DNA of 42,527 nt from Elusimicrobiota bacterium (GTDB taxonomy: Bacteria > Elusimicrobiota > Elusimicrobia > Elusimicrobiales > Elusimicrobiaceae): contig JAAYTX010000093.1 in NCBI GenBank assembly GCA_012523635.1, positions 1 to 42,527 on the forward strand, given 5' to 3'. Every line of letters begins with the position of its first letter. Position 1 is the first letter of the stretch. This document shows, piece after piece, positions 1 to 12,173 of this stretch. The notes beneath the pieces were generated by a model. The model was not told where the DNA came from. It saw only the letters and a program-made list of their open reading frames with translations, and ran no database searches. Made by a program: the position numbers and the translations under genes.

Positions 1-529
1 TGCGGGTCAGGTCCGCCCAGAAATTGCCGATATTGTCCGTTTTGCCGGACGTGATTGCGCGCGCAAGCGCGGCGAAAACCGCCATGCCCGTCGCCGCGCT
101 GAGGAAATTCTGCACGCCCAGGCCCAGCATCTGCGTCAGATAGCCGAGCGTCGTCTCGCCTGCGTAAGCCTGCCAGTTGGTGTTGGTCATGAAGCTGGCC
201 GCCGTGTTGAACGCCAGCGACCAGTCCACGGGGCCAGCGTTGTTCGGGTTAAGCGGCAACTTATGCTGAAACAGTTGCAGTGCGAAGACCGCCAGGAACC
301 CCAGCGCGTTGAACGCCAGCAGCGCCCCGGCGTAGCTTTTCCAGGTCATCGGCTCGTCCGGGTTTATGCCGCACAGCCGGTAGACCAGGCGTTCCAGCGG
401 TCCGAAGAGCCTGTGCTGGAAAGGGCTTTTGTCCTGCAAGGCTGCGGCCACATAAGCGCCCAGCGGCCTGGCTAAAACAAGCAGCGCGGCTATGTAAAGC
501 GCAATCTGCGCGATGTCGTATTTGTTCAT
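1..529 (-). CDS. kdpA: Potassium-transporting ATPase subunit KdpA, N-terminal part (runs off window start)
   Basis: Minus-strand translation starts MNKYDIAQIALYIAALLVLARPLGAYVAAALQDKSPFQHRLFGPLERLVYRLCGINPDEPMTWKSYAGALLAFN...NPNNAGPVDWSLAFNTAASFMTNTNWQAYAGETTLGYLTQMLGLGVQNFLSAATGMAV, a characteristic KdpA N-terminus. The frame is open to the window edge, and SD GGAGAGG lies upstream. Confidence 0.95.
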   Translation of the reverse strand, partial: MNKYDIAQIALYIAALLVLARPLGAYVAAALQDKSPFQHRLFGPLERLVYRLCGINPDEPMTWKSYAGALLAFNALGFLAVFALQLFQHKLPLNPNNAGPVDWSLAFNTAASFMTNTNWQAYAGETTLGYLTQMLGLGVQNFLSAATGMAVFAALARAITSGKTDNIGNFWADLTR

Positions 530-929: not shown

Positions 930-1418
930 TCAGAAAATGGCCTGCCAGTTGCGGGTGGTGAGGCGGAATTCCACGCGGCGGTTCAGCGCGCGCGCTTCCT
1001 CGGTGGTGCTGCGCACCAGCGGCTTGCGCTCCCCGTAGCCGTATATCTTCACATAGTCTGGCCAGACGCCCCTGTCGGTCAGATAGGTTTTCACGGCTTT
1101 GGCGCGGGCGTAGGACAGCGCGTCGTTGTAGTCGTCGGAGCCGACGTCGTCGCAGTGCCCTTCCACCACCAGCTTCAGCGTGCGGTTGTCTATCAGTATC
1201 TGCGCTATCTTGTTCAGGGTTTCGTAGGAGGCGGGCAGCAGTATGGCCTTGTCCGATTCGAACTCTATGGCCGGCAGCTGGCGCGAGGCTATCATCTCCT
1301 TTATGGTCTGGAGTTTCTGGGCGTCGCGCCTGGCCCACTCGCGTTCCTCGTAAGACACCGAGGCGCAGGCGGCCAGGCCCAGCAGCAGTATGGCGGGAAG
1401 CAGTTTTTTCACAGGCAC
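930..1418 (-). CDS. OmpA-family / peptidoglycan-associated (Pal-like) lipoprotein
   Basis: Lipoprotein signal MPVKKLLPAILLLGLAAC; OmpA C-terminal domain motifs (VVEGHCDDVGSDDYNDALSYARAKAVKTYL, IYGYGERKPLV, LNRRVEFRLT). Confidence 0.9.
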   Translation of the reverse strand: MPVKKLLPAILLLGLAACASVSYEEREWARRDAQKLQTIKEMIASRQLPAIEFESDKAILLPASYETLNKIAQILIDNRTLKLVVEGHCDDVGSDDYNDALSYARAKAVKTYLTDRGVWPDYVKIYGYGERKPLVRSTTEEARALNRRVEFRLTTRNWQAIF

Positions 1419-1482: not shown

Positions 1483-1875
1483 CTAGGCCAGCCCGGTTTC
1501 CTTCAGCGCTTCCTTCAGCGACTGCGGCGTCGCCGGCTTCACTATGTAGCCGGAGCATTCCTTGTTGTAGGATTCGGAAACGTCCTTGAGCCGGTTCTTG
1601 ACCGTCACCATCAGCACCTTTGAGCGTTTGGCCGCCGGCACGGCCAGCTTCTCCTCCTGGGCGCGCAGCAGCTCAAGCACTTTCTTGCCGTCCATGCCGG
1701 GCATCTCTATGTCCAGCGTGACAAGCTCGTACGGCAGGCCGCTTTCCAGCGCGTCGCGGAACAGCAGGAGCGCCGCCTCGCCTCCGGGAGCGACGTCGCA
1801 GTCCCCGTATGCCGCCAGCAGCGATTTAAGCTGCGTGCGGCTGGTGTAATCGTCGTCCACAACCAGTATTCTCAT
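1483..1875 (-). CDS. Single-domain response regulator (CheY-like receiver)
   Basis: MRILVVDDDYTSRTQLKSLLAAYG...LVTLDIEMPGMDGKKVLELL...GYIVKPATPQSL. The start at M15 of the supplied ORF is more plausible than the extended start. Confidence 0.9.
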   Translation of the reverse strand: MRILVVDDDYTSRTQLKSLLAAYGDCDVAPGGEAALLLFRDALESGLPYELVTLDIEMPGMDGKKVLELLRAQEEKLAVPAAKRSKVLMVTVKNRLKDVSESYNKECSGYIVKPATPQSLKEALKETGLA

Positions 1876-1891
1876 AATCCCTCCGTACGGC

Positions 1892-3541
1892 TCAGGCGTC
1901 CATGGCCGCCACCACAAGCGGGGCGATGCGCGTTATTTCCGCGGCATGGGCGGCGCAGGCCGCCCCATCCCCCGACCGGGCGGCATCCTCAAGCTGGCGC
2001 GCGGCCGCCGATAACCCCGGGGCTCCCACGGCGGCCGCGCTTCCCGCCAGCTTATGCGCTGTTTTCCCCAGCGTCGCGAAATCCCCCCCGCGCAGCTGCT
2101 GGTCCAGCGCGGGAAGAAAAAGTTCCAGGTCCCCCCTGAATTTGCTTAGGGCCATGCGGTAAAGCATGGCGTTTCCGCCGAAGAGCTCAAGCCCCAGCGC
2201 CGCGTCGAGCGCAGGGGAGGCTGAGTTTGTTGTCGGCGCGGCCTGCGGCCGGGCCGCCTGCGCGGCGGGCAGGTTCACGTGCCCGTATCTGCCTATCAGC
2301 GCGGCCAGCGCGCCCACCTTGGTGGGTTTCAGCAGCACTTCCGCGAAGCCTGTTTCCAGGCATTCGCGGTGCACTGCCGGGTTCACGTTCGCGGTGATGG
2401 CTATCAGCGGCAGGCGCGGATGCTTCAGGCGTATGTTGGCGGCGGCTATCACGCCGTCCATGACCGGCATCTGCAGGTCAAGGAACACGAGGTCGAATTC
2501 CGTCTTTTCGCAGGCGGCGACGGCCTCCTCGCCGTTTTCCACTAAAACCAGGTTTTTAAGCCCCAGTTGCTGGAGCTGCGCCCGCGCCAGGTCGCGGTTG
2601 ACCTCCTGGTCTTCGGCGTAAAGTATGCGCAGGTTCTCGGCCGGGACGGGGATTTCCGCCGGAGCCGCCGCCGCGCCGTCCCTGGCCGCCGCAGACGCCT
2701 CCTGCGCCAGCTTTGTGGTGAACGGTATCTCGCACCAGAAGATGCTTCCTTTGCCGGGCTGGCTTGAGCAGCCCAGCGTGCCGCCCATCTGCTCCACCAG
2801 GCGCTTCACTATGTAAGTGCCAAGCCCTGTGCCCTCGTATTTTCGGTCGAGGTTTGAGTCGGCCTGATAGAACGGGGTGAACAGGTTCTTCATTTTATCG
2901 GCGTCCATGCCTATGCCGCTGTCGGAGATGCGGAAGCGGGCGCGGTACTGGTCCGGCCCCGAACGCTCCGCCGTGATTTCCAGCGCCACAAACCCTTTTT
3001 CGGTGAACTTCACGGCGTTGCCCACCAGGTTCACCAGTATCTGGCGCACGCGGTAGGCGTCGCCTATCACCTGCGGGGGCAGGCCTTCTGCGGCGGACAC
3101 GTCAAGCCGCAGGCCCTTGGCCTCGGCCAGCGGGCGCATTATGGTTTCCAGGTCGCGGGCGACGCCCGACAGCGTGAACGGCCTGGCCACCAGGTCGAAG
3201 GTGCCTGCCTCCATTTTGGCCTGGTCCAGAATGTCGTTGATGAGGCGCAGGAAGGATTCAGACTCGTGCATTATTATAGACGCCCGCCGCACCACTTCCG
3301 GCTGGTTTGAAATCAGCGTTATATACTCCGCGAACCCGATGATGGCATGCAGCGGCGTGCGCATCTCGTGCGAGATGCGGGACAGGAATTCGCTTTTCGC
3401 GGTGTCGGCGTCGGGTTTCGCGGCCTTGTCGAACCGGTCGTAAGTCTCCGATACGGAGCGCAAAAGAGGTTCCAGTTCGCGGGGTATGTCCTTCTCCCCC
3501 CCGAAAATGTCGCGCAGTTGCAATACCAGCCTTTTGTTCAT
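1892..3541 (-). CDS. Soluble hybrid sensor histidine kinase (HisKA-HATPase-REC-HPt)
   Basis: H-box SHEMRTPLHAIIGFAEY, N-box NLVGNAVKFTEKG, G-boxes DSGIGM / GTGLGTYIVKRLVEQMGG, receiver LDLQMPVMDG, C-terminal HPt-like TAHKLAGSAAAVGA. Start taken at MNKRLVLQLRDIFGG. Confidence 0.92.
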   Translation of the reverse strand: MNKRLVLQLRDIFGGEKDIPRELEPLLRSVSETYDRFDKAAKPDADTAKSEFLSRISHEMRTPLHAIIGFAEYITLISNQPEVVRRASIIMHESESFLRLINDILDQAKMEAGTFDLVARPFTLSGVARDLETIMRPLAEAKGLRLDVSAAEGLPPQVIGDAYRVRQILVNLVGNAVKFTEKGFVALEITAERSGPDQYRARFRISDSGIGMDADKMKNLFTPFYQADSNLDRKYEGTGLGTYIVKRLVEQMGGTLGCSSQPGKGSIFWCEIPFTTKLAQEASAAARDGAAAAPAEIPVPAENLRILYAEDQEVNRDLARAQLQQLGLKNLVLVENGEEAVAACEKTEFDLVFLDLQMPVMDGVIAAANIRLKHPRLPLIAITANVNPAVHRECLETGFAEVLLKPTKVGALAALIGRYGHVNLPAAQAARPQAAPTTNSASPALDAALGLELFGGNAMLYRMALSKFRGDLELFLPALDQQLRGGDFATLGKTAHKLAGSAAAVGAPGLSAAARQLEDAARSGDGAACAAHAAEITRIAPLVVAAMDA

Positions 3542-3719
3542 ACCGCTCCCGGCTTTGCGGGTGTTTTTTACGCGCAACGCTTCAGCCCCCCGCTTCGCAA
3601 GCCATGCGCCGCTGTTTCCATTGGCGCTTTGTACTCCAGTATATCCGCCGGCTATTGCGCCTGCTATCGGGAGCCGTCCTACACGTTTGTAGGGATGGGG
3701 GTTCGGGTCGAATTGTGAA

Positions 3720-4072
3720 CATCTTGTGCAAAAATAAACCTTTATCCACATTTTCAACACTCATTTTCCGCTTTTTAAGCCCCATTTGGGCTGGTTTATC
3801 CACATTAGGTTGACAATTATATACGGTTATTCTGCCGTCGGAAAAAGGCATTTTTTTGCGCGGGGTTGCCAACAGGTGTGGAATTAATGTTGATAACTTT
3901 ACATCGTTTGAGATTGTGCTTGTTTTATAAGGCTTTTTTACGGTTTTTCAGCGGGGAAGGGGCGGGTTTTCCGGCTTTAGACAGCTTTATCAACAGCTAA
4001 AAGCGGGGGTGTGTGGATAACTTCGCGATTTGTGCAAATTGCTTTGGCATTTGCGCAAACGCTTTGGGGCAT
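3720..4072. other. Candidate replication origin / DnaA-box cluster
   Basis: Perfect TTATCCACA at 3742-3750(+), 3796-3804(+) and 4012-4020(-); TTATCAACA at 3987-3995(+) and 3888-3896(-). All lie in an AT-rich noncoding stretch between two CDSs. Confidence 0.6.
4029..4072. repeat. Two-copy tandem repeat TTTGYGCAAAnnGCTTTGG(GG)CA
   Basis: TTTGTGCAAATTGCTTTGGCA followed by TTTGCGCAAACGCTTTGGGGCA. A further TTGTGCAAA is at 3724-3732. Confidence 0.6.
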
Positions 4073-4073
4073 G

Positions 4074-4100
4074 AAAAAGCCCCGCTTTTATGCGGGGCTT
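4074..4100 (-). terminator. Rho-independent terminator of the ferritin-like gene
   Basis: AGCCCCGC-ATAAAA-GCGGGGCT followed by TTTTC on the minus strand. Confidence 0.85.
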
Positions 4101-4124
4101 TGCATGGCTAAAGCCGGACTGGCC

Positions 4125-4667
4125 CTATGCGGCTTCCTGCTTCAGTTGGGCAATCAGTTTCGAAAGCATCCGTATGTGCTTGAGCTCCTCGGCCACTATG
4201 CCGTCTATTACCAGCTTGTCGTTTTCCTCGTCCATGTTTTCGCGCATTGAGAGGTAGAAGACGACGGAATCCTTTTCCATGCCCATGGCGGTCTGCGCCA
4301 GCTTCAGCATGGAGGTGTTGGCCGCCGCCATGTCCTGCGGCTGTGAGGACAGCACGGTTTTGGACACAAACGCGTCGGCCTGGGCAAGCGTCGGGCCCTG
4401 TCCGGCGGGCTGCAGCTCCTGCTGCACGTATTTGAAATACGCGTCTATAGAATCGGTCGAGTCTTTTTTTGCGGTAAGTTTGGCTTTTTCAAGCTGTTCA
4501 GTGAAGATGCGCGAATGCTGGAGCTCCATTTCCGCCAGGTCGTTGAAAAAACCCTGCTGTTCCTCAGTGCGGGACATTTCAGCCGCCTTGCGGTAAAACC
4601 CCGCGCCGCGCTGTTCTATCAGCACCGCCATTTCCAGAACGTCCTTGCCGTTGAATAATGCCGCCAT
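4125..4667 (-). CDS. Ferritin-like / rubrerythrin-type diiron domain protein
   Basis: Paired helical motifs EMAVLIEQRGAGFYRKAA, EMELQHSRIF, EKDSVVFYLSMRENMDEENDKLVIDGIVAEELKHIRML (ExxH-type ligands). Confidence 0.85.
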   Translation of the reverse strand: MAALFNGKDVLEMAVLIEQRGAGFYRKAAEMSRTEEQQGFFNDLAEMELQHSRIFTEQLEKAKLTAKKDSTDSIDAYFKYVQQELQPAGQGPTLAQADAFVSKTVLSSQPQDMAAANTSMLKLAQTAMGMEKDSVVFYLSMRENMDEENDKLVIDGIVAEELKHIRMLSKLIAQLKQEAA

Positions 4668-9669: not shown

Positions 9670-9720
9670 CGGGCTCCCCCCTCGCCGCGCATGACCGCGC
9701 GGCCTAAGCCGGTTCCAACC

Positions 9721-9850
9721 TGTCACCGCGAGGGCGGACCCGTTACCCATGGTGTCATTGCGAGGGTGCGAAGCACCCGCGGCAATCTATAATTCTACTC
9801 TGCGGTCGTGGCGGTCTATAATTTTCAGATTCATAGACTGCTTCATCGGG
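9721..9850. repeat. Palindromic interspersed repeat cluster
   Basis: TGTCACCGCGAG..., TGTCATTGCGAGGGTGCGAAGCACCCGCGGCAATCTATAATT and GCGGTCTATAATTTTCAGATTCATAGACTGCTTC: several (partial) units of the family. Confidence 0.75.
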
Positions 9851-9910
9851 AAGATAACATGCTCGCGACCGAGTTAAGACGAGTAGGAGCGACCAAGCGC
9901 TAACGCGAAG

Positions 9911-10006
9911 AAGTGCCACTACCTTTAAAGCTGTTTAGAAAAGTGGCCCACTTCAAAGTTGTTTGAAGAGTGGCCAGTGATACCAGGTGAAAAGCGGTCA
10001 GTGGCA
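9911..10006. mobile_element. Putative relic of an IS21-like terminal repeat end
   Basis: Direct imperfect repeats CCTTTAAAGCTGTTTAGAAAAGTGGCC and CACTTCAAAGTTGTTTGAAGAGTGGCC, plus a preceding AAGTGCCACTACC, resemble multiple terminal repeats of IS21-family ends. No transposase ORF is present. Confidence 0.4.
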
Positions 10007-10016
10007 TATTTTTTTG

Positions 10017-10055
10017 TGTCACCGCGAGCGAGTGAAACGAGCGCGGCGGTCTATG
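10017..10055. repeat. Palindromic interspersed repeat half-unit
   Basis: TGTCACCGCGAGCGAGTGAAACGAGCGCGGCGGTCTATGAA, nearly identical to the second half-unit at about 8371-8410. Confidence 0.75.
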
Positions 10056-10060
10056 AATAC

Positions 10061-10086
10061 AAAAGCCGTCCATTGGACGGCTTTCT
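10061..10086 (-). terminator. Rho-independent terminator (possibly bidirectional)
   Basis: AAAAGCCGTCC-ATT-GGACGGCTTT hairpin. Confidence 0.6.
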
Positions 10087-10124
10087 CTCTAATTTTAACC
10101 GAACCGACCTAGGCATGGTTTTCG

Positions 10125-11039
10125 CTATTTTGCTAAGCTGAACTTGCTAAGACGTATTCCTGTATAATCATCAAAATCCCTGTCTTCCGGTTTGCCTGGC
10201 TTATCTGAATATGGCGCCAATAGGTAAAAATTACCTTGCATAGATACACGTCTACTAGACATAAGCTCATACGGTACTTCCGCTAAAAAAGTCCCATCAG
10301 GACTATATTTTCTTATTACACCTTGCATAAGTACCCAAACATTATTAAAACTATCCGTCAAAAAATAGTACATGTCCTTACCTGCATAGGCGGGGGACTT
10401 GATTGCCTCATCCTTGACCTGACCATCATTCCCAATAACTCCCACAATTTCAGTAATAATTTCAAATCTAGGGTCATTCTTAAATAACTTTTTTAATTCG
10501 GCCAATTTCTCTTCGGATGTCATTCTTTTTTCAACCTGAGCTCGTTCATCTGCTGAAGTAATTTTAATGAACTTATCATTTTCTAATTTAAGAACATTCA
10601 CATCGTTATTCCACTTGCCGCTGCGATCAAGCTGAAGAGCATATACGGCACCGTTTTTAAATAACATCGATTCTATGAAGTAGAGACTAAATGGCGGTTC
10701 GTATTCTTCCCGCAGGTAATTATTGGAAGGCAGATAAGCATTAATCGGAATTACCCCAATCAAATGGCCTGCGGCATCATAATGTTGGACACGATTATTA
10801 AATGAATCCAGTATATAAATGTGCTCCTTATCATCTACAACAAATTGGTCGGGCCAAGAAAAACTACCTTCCCCTCCGCCAGTCCGATATTCACCCGGTT
10901 TAGTTCCCCATGTGGCCTGTATAAGCACCTTTGATTCGTAGCGTTCTTTGGGGTGTTCAGCCTCTGCCGCCAAAGCTTTCTGGCCGTAAATGCCAGACAA
11001 CATAATTGCCGCCATTATCAACCCGTATTTTGTTTTCAT
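10125..11039 (-). CDS. Secreted NHL/6-bladed beta-propeller-like protein, low GC
   Basis: Signal peptide MKTKYGLIMAAIMLSGIYGQKALAAEA; propeller-like repeats (FSWPDQFVVDDKEHIYILDSFNNRVQHYDAAGHLIG; MYYFLTDSFNNVWVLMQGVIRKYSPDGTFLAEVP). Start taken at MKTKYG after an SD-like GCGAGGGAA. Confidence 0.7.
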   Translation of the reverse strand: MKTKYGLIMAAIMLSGIYGQKALAAEAEHPKERYESKVLIQATWGTKPGEYRTGGGEGSFSWPDQFVVDDKEHIYILDSFNNRVQHYDAAGHLIGVIPINAYLPSNNYLREEYEPPFSLYFIESMLFKNGAVYALQLDRSGKWNNDVNVLKLENDKFIKITSADERAQVEKRMTSEEKLAELKKLFKNDPRFEIITEIVGVIGNDGQVKDEAIKSPAYAGKDMYYFLTDSFNNVWVLMQGVIRKYSPDGTFLAEVPYELMSSRRVSMQGNFYLLAPYSDKPGKPEDRDFDDYTGIRLSKFSLAK

Positions 11040-11291
11040 ATTCCCTCGCTTTCGCAAGAAATCTTCATAAATTTCGTACCACGCCACACCCGCCTCAACC
11101 ACCAAATAGCCTATTTTAGGCTGCATTTCCGCAATGCCACAGCATTGCAATGCAACAAGCCTGTAGCTAACCCTTACCCGGCACCACAAACATGTTCGCT
11201 AACCCCCCCACGACACGTGGACACAACCATAAAAACTCTGCTATTGGCACTGCTGTAGGTTGAATATCCAGCGCCACCCCACACTGAACTC

Positions 11292-11918
11292 CTACTCCGC
11301 AAGAGCTTTCTTCCTAAACTCTTCCTCTTCCTCAGCACTTTTTTTCTGATATTCTTCCTGCAGAACTCTAGTTTTCACATCGTACTCTTTCCTTAGCGCG
11401 GCTTCCTGGGCTTCGTCAAGGTTTGGCTTATCCAAAGCGTCTAGCAGTTTCTCTTTTTCTTCAAATAGCTTGTTGTTGTATTCCTTCCCGCTTTTGTACC
11501 GCGTTTCCATACGCGCCATATAAGTGGCCTTCTCGTCTTCTGTCATCTGCTTGTTCTCCGCCAGTTTCGCCCTCATATTGGATACTGACTCTTTATGTTT
11601 TTTTGCCTGATAGTCCGCCATTTTTTCATGCATCTGTCTGCGAAACTTCTTCTTCTCGGCTGCTTGCTTTTTCTTGAATTTGGCCATGGCTTTGGCGCGA
11701 GATTCAGTGCTTTTGCCGGACAATGTGGACATAAACTCGCTTTCAGCCTTACGCTCCGCCATAGAGTGCTCTTCCATTTCCTGAATCAACTGGCGGCCGA
11801 AGGCCCTGTCCCGCTTTAACGTACTTAGGGCCACAGTCCCGCTGGACTGTTCTTGCGCCGCGCAAGGCGCAGCCGCAAACAAGACGATAACAACAGGCAA
11901 CAATAAACTTTTTTGCAT
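11292..11918 (-). CDS. Secreted, highly charged coiled-coil protein of unknown function, low GC
   Basis: Signal peptide MQKSLLLPVVIVLFAAAPCAAQE followed by long K/E-rich helical sequence; SD GGAGAAG upstream. Confidence 0.65.
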   Translation of the reverse strand: MQKSLLLPVVIVLFAAAPCAAQEQSSGTVALSTLKRDRAFGRQLIQEMEEHSMAERKAESEFMSTLSGKSTESRAKAMAKFKKKQAAEKKKFRRQMHEKMADYQAKKHKESVSNMRAKLAENKQMTEDEKATYMARMETRYKSGKEYNNKLFEEKEKLLDALDKPNLDEAQEAALRKEYDVKTRVLQEEYQKKSAEEEEEFRKKALAE

Positions 11919-12173
11919 ATCTTCTCCTAAATTTGCGGGAGCACGTCTTGCTTAAACTGTCCTAAAGCGGGGCAAGCTACAAAGCTGCCACGCAATCGCC
12001 CAAACCTTATTTCGCGGCGACAGATTATTGCCTATGCCCTGACGTGAATTCCCCCACCGGATGATTGTAGCTCTTGGCATGAGCACGGGCAAGGTCGCGG
12101 CGGTCCCGTCGGGCGGAATTTGCCTCGTCGGCGGACTATTTGGCACAATATATACAGGACTACGCGCTACGAC

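What the first reader, a model, noticed from the sequence alone, without database searches (positions are those of the whole stretch)
3720..4020. DnaA-box cluster in an AT-rich intergenic region: candidate chromosomal origin away from dnaA
Seen directly: three perfect TTATCCACA boxes (3742-3750 +, 3796-3804 +, 4012-4020 -) and two one-mismatch TTATCAACA boxes (3888-3896 -, 3987-3995 +) within about 280 bp of noncoding, locally AT-rich DNA in a GC-rich segment. Established: clustered DnaA boxes next to an AT-rich unwinding element are the hallmark of oriC. Inference: this is oriC or a DnaA-titrating/regulatory locus. Weak support: the kdp, Pal and kinase genes to the left are on the minus strand, while the housekeeping genes to the right (tal, ABC-F, typA, DEAD helicase, tdh) are on the plus strand, as expected for divergent replication. 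No dnaA or dnaN lies nearby in this window.
Basis: partly seen in the sequence, partly recalled or inferred. Interest (0 to 1): 0.8.

Follow-up and report, generated by a model that had tools for sequence, protein, structure and literature searches.

The report
Conserved DnaA-box cluster, not the origin
This stretch holds five binding sites for the replication-starting protein DnaA, away from where the chromosome starts replicating; most members of this bacterial family keep such a cluster beside the same outer-membrane protein gene, so it probably soaks up or resets DnaA rather than being the origin.

Summary
In detail: 3 TTATCCACA and 2 TTATCAACA lie in a 583-bp AT-rich intergenic gap, the only dense cluster in the held 2.35-Mb assembly. 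The oriC reading is not supported. dnaA-dnaN-gyrB-gyrA lies on another contig, where GC skew and gene strand both switch. In three well-assembled relatives the skew minimum falls at dnaA, and skew does not flip at their corresponding clusters. What exists is a family-wide (Elusimicrobiaceae-type) non-origin DnaA-box cluster upstream of one OmpA/Pal lipoprotein gene: in 80 named loci, 268 perfect boxes in the 63 kb upstream of that gene against 18 in 782 kb around it (185-fold). Most relatives share near-fixed geometry (+ 20 + ~84 + 11 + 12 -) although one long spacer is random in sequence. The window copy lies upstream of the same OmpA gene, but a hybrid kinase and a receiver gene lie between, and its spacing differs. 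Most likely it is a DnaA-titration or activity-control site that works like datA, DARS or the Bacillus clusters. It fails the tested DARS spacing and shows no IHF site, so it is filed as neither. A DnaA-controlled promoter is the main rival.

The parts
3542..4124 (.). AT-rich intergenic gap that holds the DnaA-box cluster
   Evidence: no gene; 36-43% GC in its middle
3742..3750 (+). DnaA box TTATCCACA
3796..3804 (+). DnaA box TTATCCACA
3888..3896 (-). DnaA box TTATCAACA
3987..3995 (+). DnaA box TTATCAACA
4012..4020 (-). DnaA box TTATCCACA
3751..3759 (+). weak box-like TTTTCAACA directly after box 3742
   Evidence: two mismatches to TTATCCACA
4071..4101 (.). G+C-rich hairpin with T run, probably the terminator of the ferritin-like gene; the only part of the gap with DNA matches in relatives
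1892..3541 (-). hybrid histidine kinase (HisKA, HATPase_c, receiver, Hpt) between cluster and OmpA
   Evidence: Pfam
1483..1917 (-). receiver-domain protein
   Evidence: Pfam
930..1418 (-). OmpA/Pal-type lipoprotein, orthologue of the gene beside the cluster in relatives
4125..4667 (-). ferritin/rubrerythrin-like gene on the other side of the cluster
   Evidence: Pfam

Best explanation
The cluster is not an origin. It is this genome's diverged copy of a family-wide, non-origin DnaA-binding locus that lies upstream of one OmpA/Pal lipoprotein gene. Mechanism (inferred): DnaA binds the high-affinity boxes as a multi-protein complex; the locus, once replicated, changes the amount or the nucleotide state of free DnaA and so helps time initiation at the dnaA-linked oriC. 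Shown: the boxes, their non-chance clustering, their distance from the skew-defined origin in relatives, family-wide conservation of place and, in most genera, of spacing, and an intact box-reading motif in the genome's DnaA. Inferred: that DnaA binds here, that binding affects initiation, and whether it acts by titration, by ATP hydrolysis (as at datA) or by ADP release (as at DARS).
For: Only dense cluster in the held assembly. Origin elsewhere: skew and strand switch at dnaA on C91 and at dnaA in G001, G007 and G015, with no flip at their clusters nor along the G050 contig. Six well-assembled relatives each have a dense cluster away from dnaA, upstream of the OmpA orthologue. The exact 20-bp pair is in 65 of 90 family genomes, reversed control in 1 of 235; in all 45 genomes where coordinates could be compared it lies within 1 kb upstream of OmpA on its strand. 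268 boxes in 63 kb upstream of OmpA against 18 in 782 kb around, in 80 named loci. The B-C spacer keeps its length within a few bases at 33% ungapped identity, so spacing seems to be under selection. DnaA keeps DHSTVVHA. In G020 and G030 two boxes remain between the esterase-like gene and the 3' end of uvrB, away from OmpA.
Against: The window copy lacks the conserved spacing, has two genes between itself and OmpA, and has a different upstream neighbour. In most relatives the cluster is directly upstream of the OmpA promoter, which fits transcription control as well. Some genus-g3 genomes lack a dense cluster, so it is dispensable there. No binding or replication data exist.
Confidence: 0.6

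Rival explanations
1. DnaA-controlled promoter. DnaA acts as a transcription factor at the cluster and ties expression of the OmpA/Pal envelope protein (here a kinase-receiver-OmpA gene row) to the replication cycle; titration is a by-product.
For: In relatives the cluster ends shortly before a conserved TGcTATAAT and ribosome-binding site of the OmpA gene, always on the OmpA side and strand. In the window the cluster precedes the kinase gene on the same strand.
Against: Five to six strong boxes over ~130-280 bp with a long fixed-length spacer is more than a simple promoter site needs. Two boxes persist in G020 and G030 between convergent gene ends without OmpA. No sigma-70-like promoter was found in the window gap.
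Confidence: 0.25
2. It is the chromosomal origin, or a second origin, of this genome.
For: Clustered boxes in AT-rich DNA; more perfect boxes than at the genome's own dnaA.
Against: Skew and gene strand switch at dnaA on C91; the window shows no skew switch at the cluster (-0.013, +0.017, -0.012 in three blocks); three relatives have their skew minimum at dnaA and none at the cluster.
Confidence: 0.05
3. The window cluster is unrelated to the relatives' OmpA-linked cluster and arose independently nearby.
For: Different geometry, different upstream neighbour, two genes between it and OmpA.
Against: It is the only dense cluster of a 2.35-Mb assembly and still lies within about 2.4 kb on the expected side of the marker gene, roughly 0.1-0.2% by chance (my estimate). 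The nearest relative, G004, has a looser, all-forward version directly upstream of OmpA.
Confidence: 0.1

Closest known systems
DnaA-box clusters outside oriC in Bacillus subtilis (Okumura et al. 2012, as cited in PMC13220808) and Streptomyces (Smulczyk-Krawczyszyn et al. 2006, as cited in PMC5742627)
   Same: Dense DnaA boxes in the chromosome outside the origin; reported there to restrain untimely initiation
   Different: Other phyla and gene neighbours; here one syntenic cluster per genome in most of a family, with near-fixed spacing in relatives; function untested
Escherichia coli datA
   Same: Non-coding locus with several strong DnaA boxes; in relatives the boxes A to D point the same way, as datA's essential boxes do
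   Different: No IHF-type site in the relatives' spacer or in the window gap; in relatives it lies partway along the replichore, whereas datA is near oriC; window boxes alternate in direction
Escherichia coli DARS1 and DARS2
   Same: The relatives' C-D-E module has two boxes facing one, the topology of the DARS core
   Different: Steps are 11 and 12 against 12 and 14 in both E. coli cores; the window copy lacks the module
Bacterial oriC
   Same: Clustered DnaA boxes in AT-rich intergenic DNA
   Different: No skew minimum, no dnaA or dnaN neighbour, no strand switch at the cluster

Membership tests
Chromosomal oriC | GC-skew minimum at the locus | tested here: not met
   Minimum at dnaA in G001, G007, G015; no flip at clusters there or in G050; no flip in the window. 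Own genome tested only on contigs
Chromosomal oriC | several DnaA boxes next to AT-rich DNA | tested here: met
Chromosomal oriC | replication starts here (read depth, nascent strands) | not testable with these tools
   no reads held
DARS | three-box core with steps 14 and 12, box I facing II and III | tested here: not met
   relatives 12 and 11 with the same topology, window none
DARS | promotes ADP release from DnaA | not testable with these tools
   needs biochemistry
datA | IHF site between essential boxes | tested here: not met
   no WATCARNNNNTTR in 48 B-C spacers or in the window gap; a diverged site or HU is not excluded
datA | stimulates ATP hydrolysis by DnaA | not testable with these tools
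   needs biochemistry
Non-origin DnaA-box cluster (Bacillus/Streptomyces type) | dense boxes outside oriC, beyond chance | tested here: met
Non-origin DnaA-box cluster (Bacillus/Streptomyces type) | removal advances initiation | not testable with these tools
   needs genetics
OmpA-linked cluster of this family (described here) | cluster upstream of the OmpA orthologue, same strand | tested here: met
   window cluster is upstream of OmpA 930-1418, but with kinase and receiver genes between
OmpA-linked cluster of this family (described here) | geometry + 20 + ~84 + 11 + 12 - | tested here: not met
   window steps 25, 99, 92, 54 with order + - + - -; no 20-bp pair in the assembly

The most novel reading that the evidence does not exclude
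The family carries an undescribed DnaA-activity switch: one nucleoprotein locus in which a same-direction box pair and a DARS-like three-box module, held about eight helical turns apart, together set the DnaA-ATP/ADP ratio in a phylum far from E. coli; the window genome shows the locus persisting after its geometry was rebuilt and a signalling gene pair entered beside it.
Probability: 0.25. Interest if true: 0.75.

Novelty: new variant of a known kind. Interest (0 to 1): 0.55.

Why it matters
Sites outside oriC that tune DnaA are worked out in E. coli and less fully in Bacillus and Streptomyces. A syntenic, spacing-constrained cluster across a gut-dwelling lineage of another phylum would suggest that such sites are a wider solution, and its near-fixed spacing makes the assembly rule testable with one purified DnaA. 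It also warns that picking the densest box cluster can name the wrong locus as the origin.

Tried and rejected
DNA similarity of the gap: only the terminator hairpin matched elsewhere, so clusters were compared by place and spacing. Ferritin-like neighbour as synteny marker: rare in relatives. Dense cluster in the sister family f2: none in the listed hits of three genomes, mainly dnaA-proximal pairs; the list was cut. CCGTCGG motif conserved upstream of box A: present at 3835 but common in these genomes, dropped. IHF site: none. Rfam: nothing. Tight conservation of chromosomal position: not supported; by my estimate about 0.42 of the arm in G001, 0.55 in G015 and 0.7-0.8 in G007, the last two resting on inferred contig joins. 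Esterase-like neighbour in the window's genome: no match, a weak negative. Literature on DnaA boxes or origins in Elusimicrobia: nothing on such a locus found in the held library.

Full report
Observation. They lie in the 583-bp gap 3542-4124 between a hybrid histidine kinase (1892-3541, minus) and a ferritin-like gene (4125-4667, minus). The gap is 36-43% GC in its middle against about 60% around it. The held assembly (G000, 2,347,802 bp, 209 contigs) has 21 TTATCCACA and 43 TTATCMACA, and this is the only dense group. Random placement reproduced three perfect boxes in 271 bp once in 20,000 trials and never five of the wider set; shuffles of the gap never gave more than one box.

Not the origin. 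dnaA (E 1.6e-140) is on contig C91, followed by dnaN, gyrB and gyrA (named here by their sequences); genes to its left run mainly minus and to its right plus. GC skew is -0.052 left of dnaA and +0.037 right of it. TTATCAACA boxes lie just upstream of dnaA and in the dnaA-dnaN gap, in AT-rich DNA. In the window, skew is weak and does not switch at the cluster (-0.013, +0.017, -0.012 in three blocks), and gene strand changes only at about 8.4 kb. Because this assembly is broken, relatives were used. Its sampled skew is positive from 0 to ~800 kb and negative from ~820 kb onward apart from one near-zero stretch at 1.60 Mb, with dnaA at 0.6 kb. Its remote cluster is at 338.7 kb, with no flip. G007 flips from minus to plus around dnaA (C1, between 340 and 370 kb) and so does G015 (C1, 222 kb); both carry their cluster in a steadily negative stretch. 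G050 is positive along the whole 699-kb contig that holds its cluster. In G001 the dnaA-dnaN gap carries several boxes and near-boxes, a good oriC candidate.

A family-wide locus. Listing TTATCCACA in six well-assembled relatives showed that each has a dense cluster away from dnaA. In all six it lies beside an OmpA/Pal lipoprotein gene, upstream of it, with an esterase-like secreted protein gene on the other side. The window's OmpA (930-1418) hits this same gene in each relative and aligns with it at 35-56% identity. The exact pair TTATCMACA-N11-TTATCMACA occurs in 65 of 90 family genomes and one genome of the sister family, and in no other of the 235 class genomes; the reversed control pattern occurs in one. 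In all 45 genomes where the two lists could be compared, the pair is within 1 kb upstream of the OmpA gene, on its strand. A scan of named genomes gave 80 OmpA loci: 268 perfect boxes in the 63 kb upstream of OmpA and 18 in the 782 kb around (185-fold). Record titles name Elusimicrobiaceae, Elusimicrobium and Elusimicrobiales, many from rumen and other gut samples.

Geometry. Read toward OmpA, 40 clusters show boxes A 0 (+), B 20 (+), C mostly 103-105 (+), D 114-116 (+), E 126-128 (-); 48 named loci agree, with C-D-E complete in most. A and B are present by selection of these loci; C, D and E are not. The B-C spacer keeps its length within a few bases while its sequence averages 33% ungapped identity, so spacing rather than sequence appears to be selected. 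The boxes, a TTGTCAACA about 112 bp upstream, and a TGcTATAAT and ribosome-binding site before OmpA are the most conserved columns.

The window copy. Here a hybrid kinase and a receiver gene, not found beside OmpA in the relatives examined, lie between cluster and OmpA, and read toward OmpA the boxes run + - + - - with steps 25, 99, 92 and 54. The nearest relative by OmpA, G004, has its cluster directly upstream of OmpA with all boxes forward. I read the window copy as the same locus with changed geometry; this rests on place and on its being the only cluster in the assembly. In G020 and G030 of genus g3, OmpA has no cluster, and two TTATCCACA boxes remain beside the esterase-like gene, facing the end of uvrB (uvrB named by its sequence).

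How it probably works. The DnaA of this genome keeps the DHSTVVHA box-reading motif. The likeliest role is that DnaA occupies the cluster and that the locus, once replicated, lowers or resets free active DnaA. This is inference. The published analogues are datA, DARS1 and DARS2, the six Bacillus clusters and the Streptomyces cluster (PMC5742627, PMC4585315, PMC13220808). The E. coli loci were measured here: DARS1 and DARS2 cores both have steps 14 and 12 with one box facing two. The relatives' C-D-E module has the same topology with steps 12 and 11 read the same way, so it resembles but does not match a DARS core. datA's IHF site is absent by consensus search. Hence it may work like this class without membership in either named type. 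The main rival is DnaA control of the OmpA (or kinase) promoter.

Limits. Skew in relatives was sampled in 20-kb stretches. Cluster positions along the arm in G007 and G015 depend on contig joins inferred from skew. The collections hold one genome per species and many are drafts. No binding or replication data exist here.

Noticed in passing
L002:922-2502 (-), from G000 contig C59: A protein of at least 526 aa with a Bac_DnaA ATPase domain (PF00308, E 6e-29), a long charged N-terminal stretch and no recognised DnaA DNA-binding domain; a possible DnaA paralogue in the same genome.
   Followed up: partly
window 9,700-12,000: A low-GC (41-48%), strongly C-skewed stretch with two minus-strand ORFs (10125-11189, 11292-11918) without a convincing Pfam match; looks like acquired DNA.
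   Followed up: no
L307:2881-3015 and L308:2952-3086: In G030 and G020 (genus g3), where OmpA has no cluster, two TTATCCACA boxes 126 bp apart sit between the esterase-like gene and the end of uvrB, perhaps a remnant of the cluster.
   Followed up: partly
window 3725, 4029 and 4049: Three near-palindromic TTGTGCAAA/TTTGCGCAAA-like motifs flank the box cluster; meaning unknown.
   Followed up: no
L060-L065: In the six relatives with clusters the OmpA gene points the way expected for the leading strand by local skew sign.
   Followed up: partly
L061:5832-8956: In G007 the OmpA-linked cluster is close to mnmE- and mnmG-like genes, which flank oriC in some other bacteria; skew shows no flip there.
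   Followed up: partly
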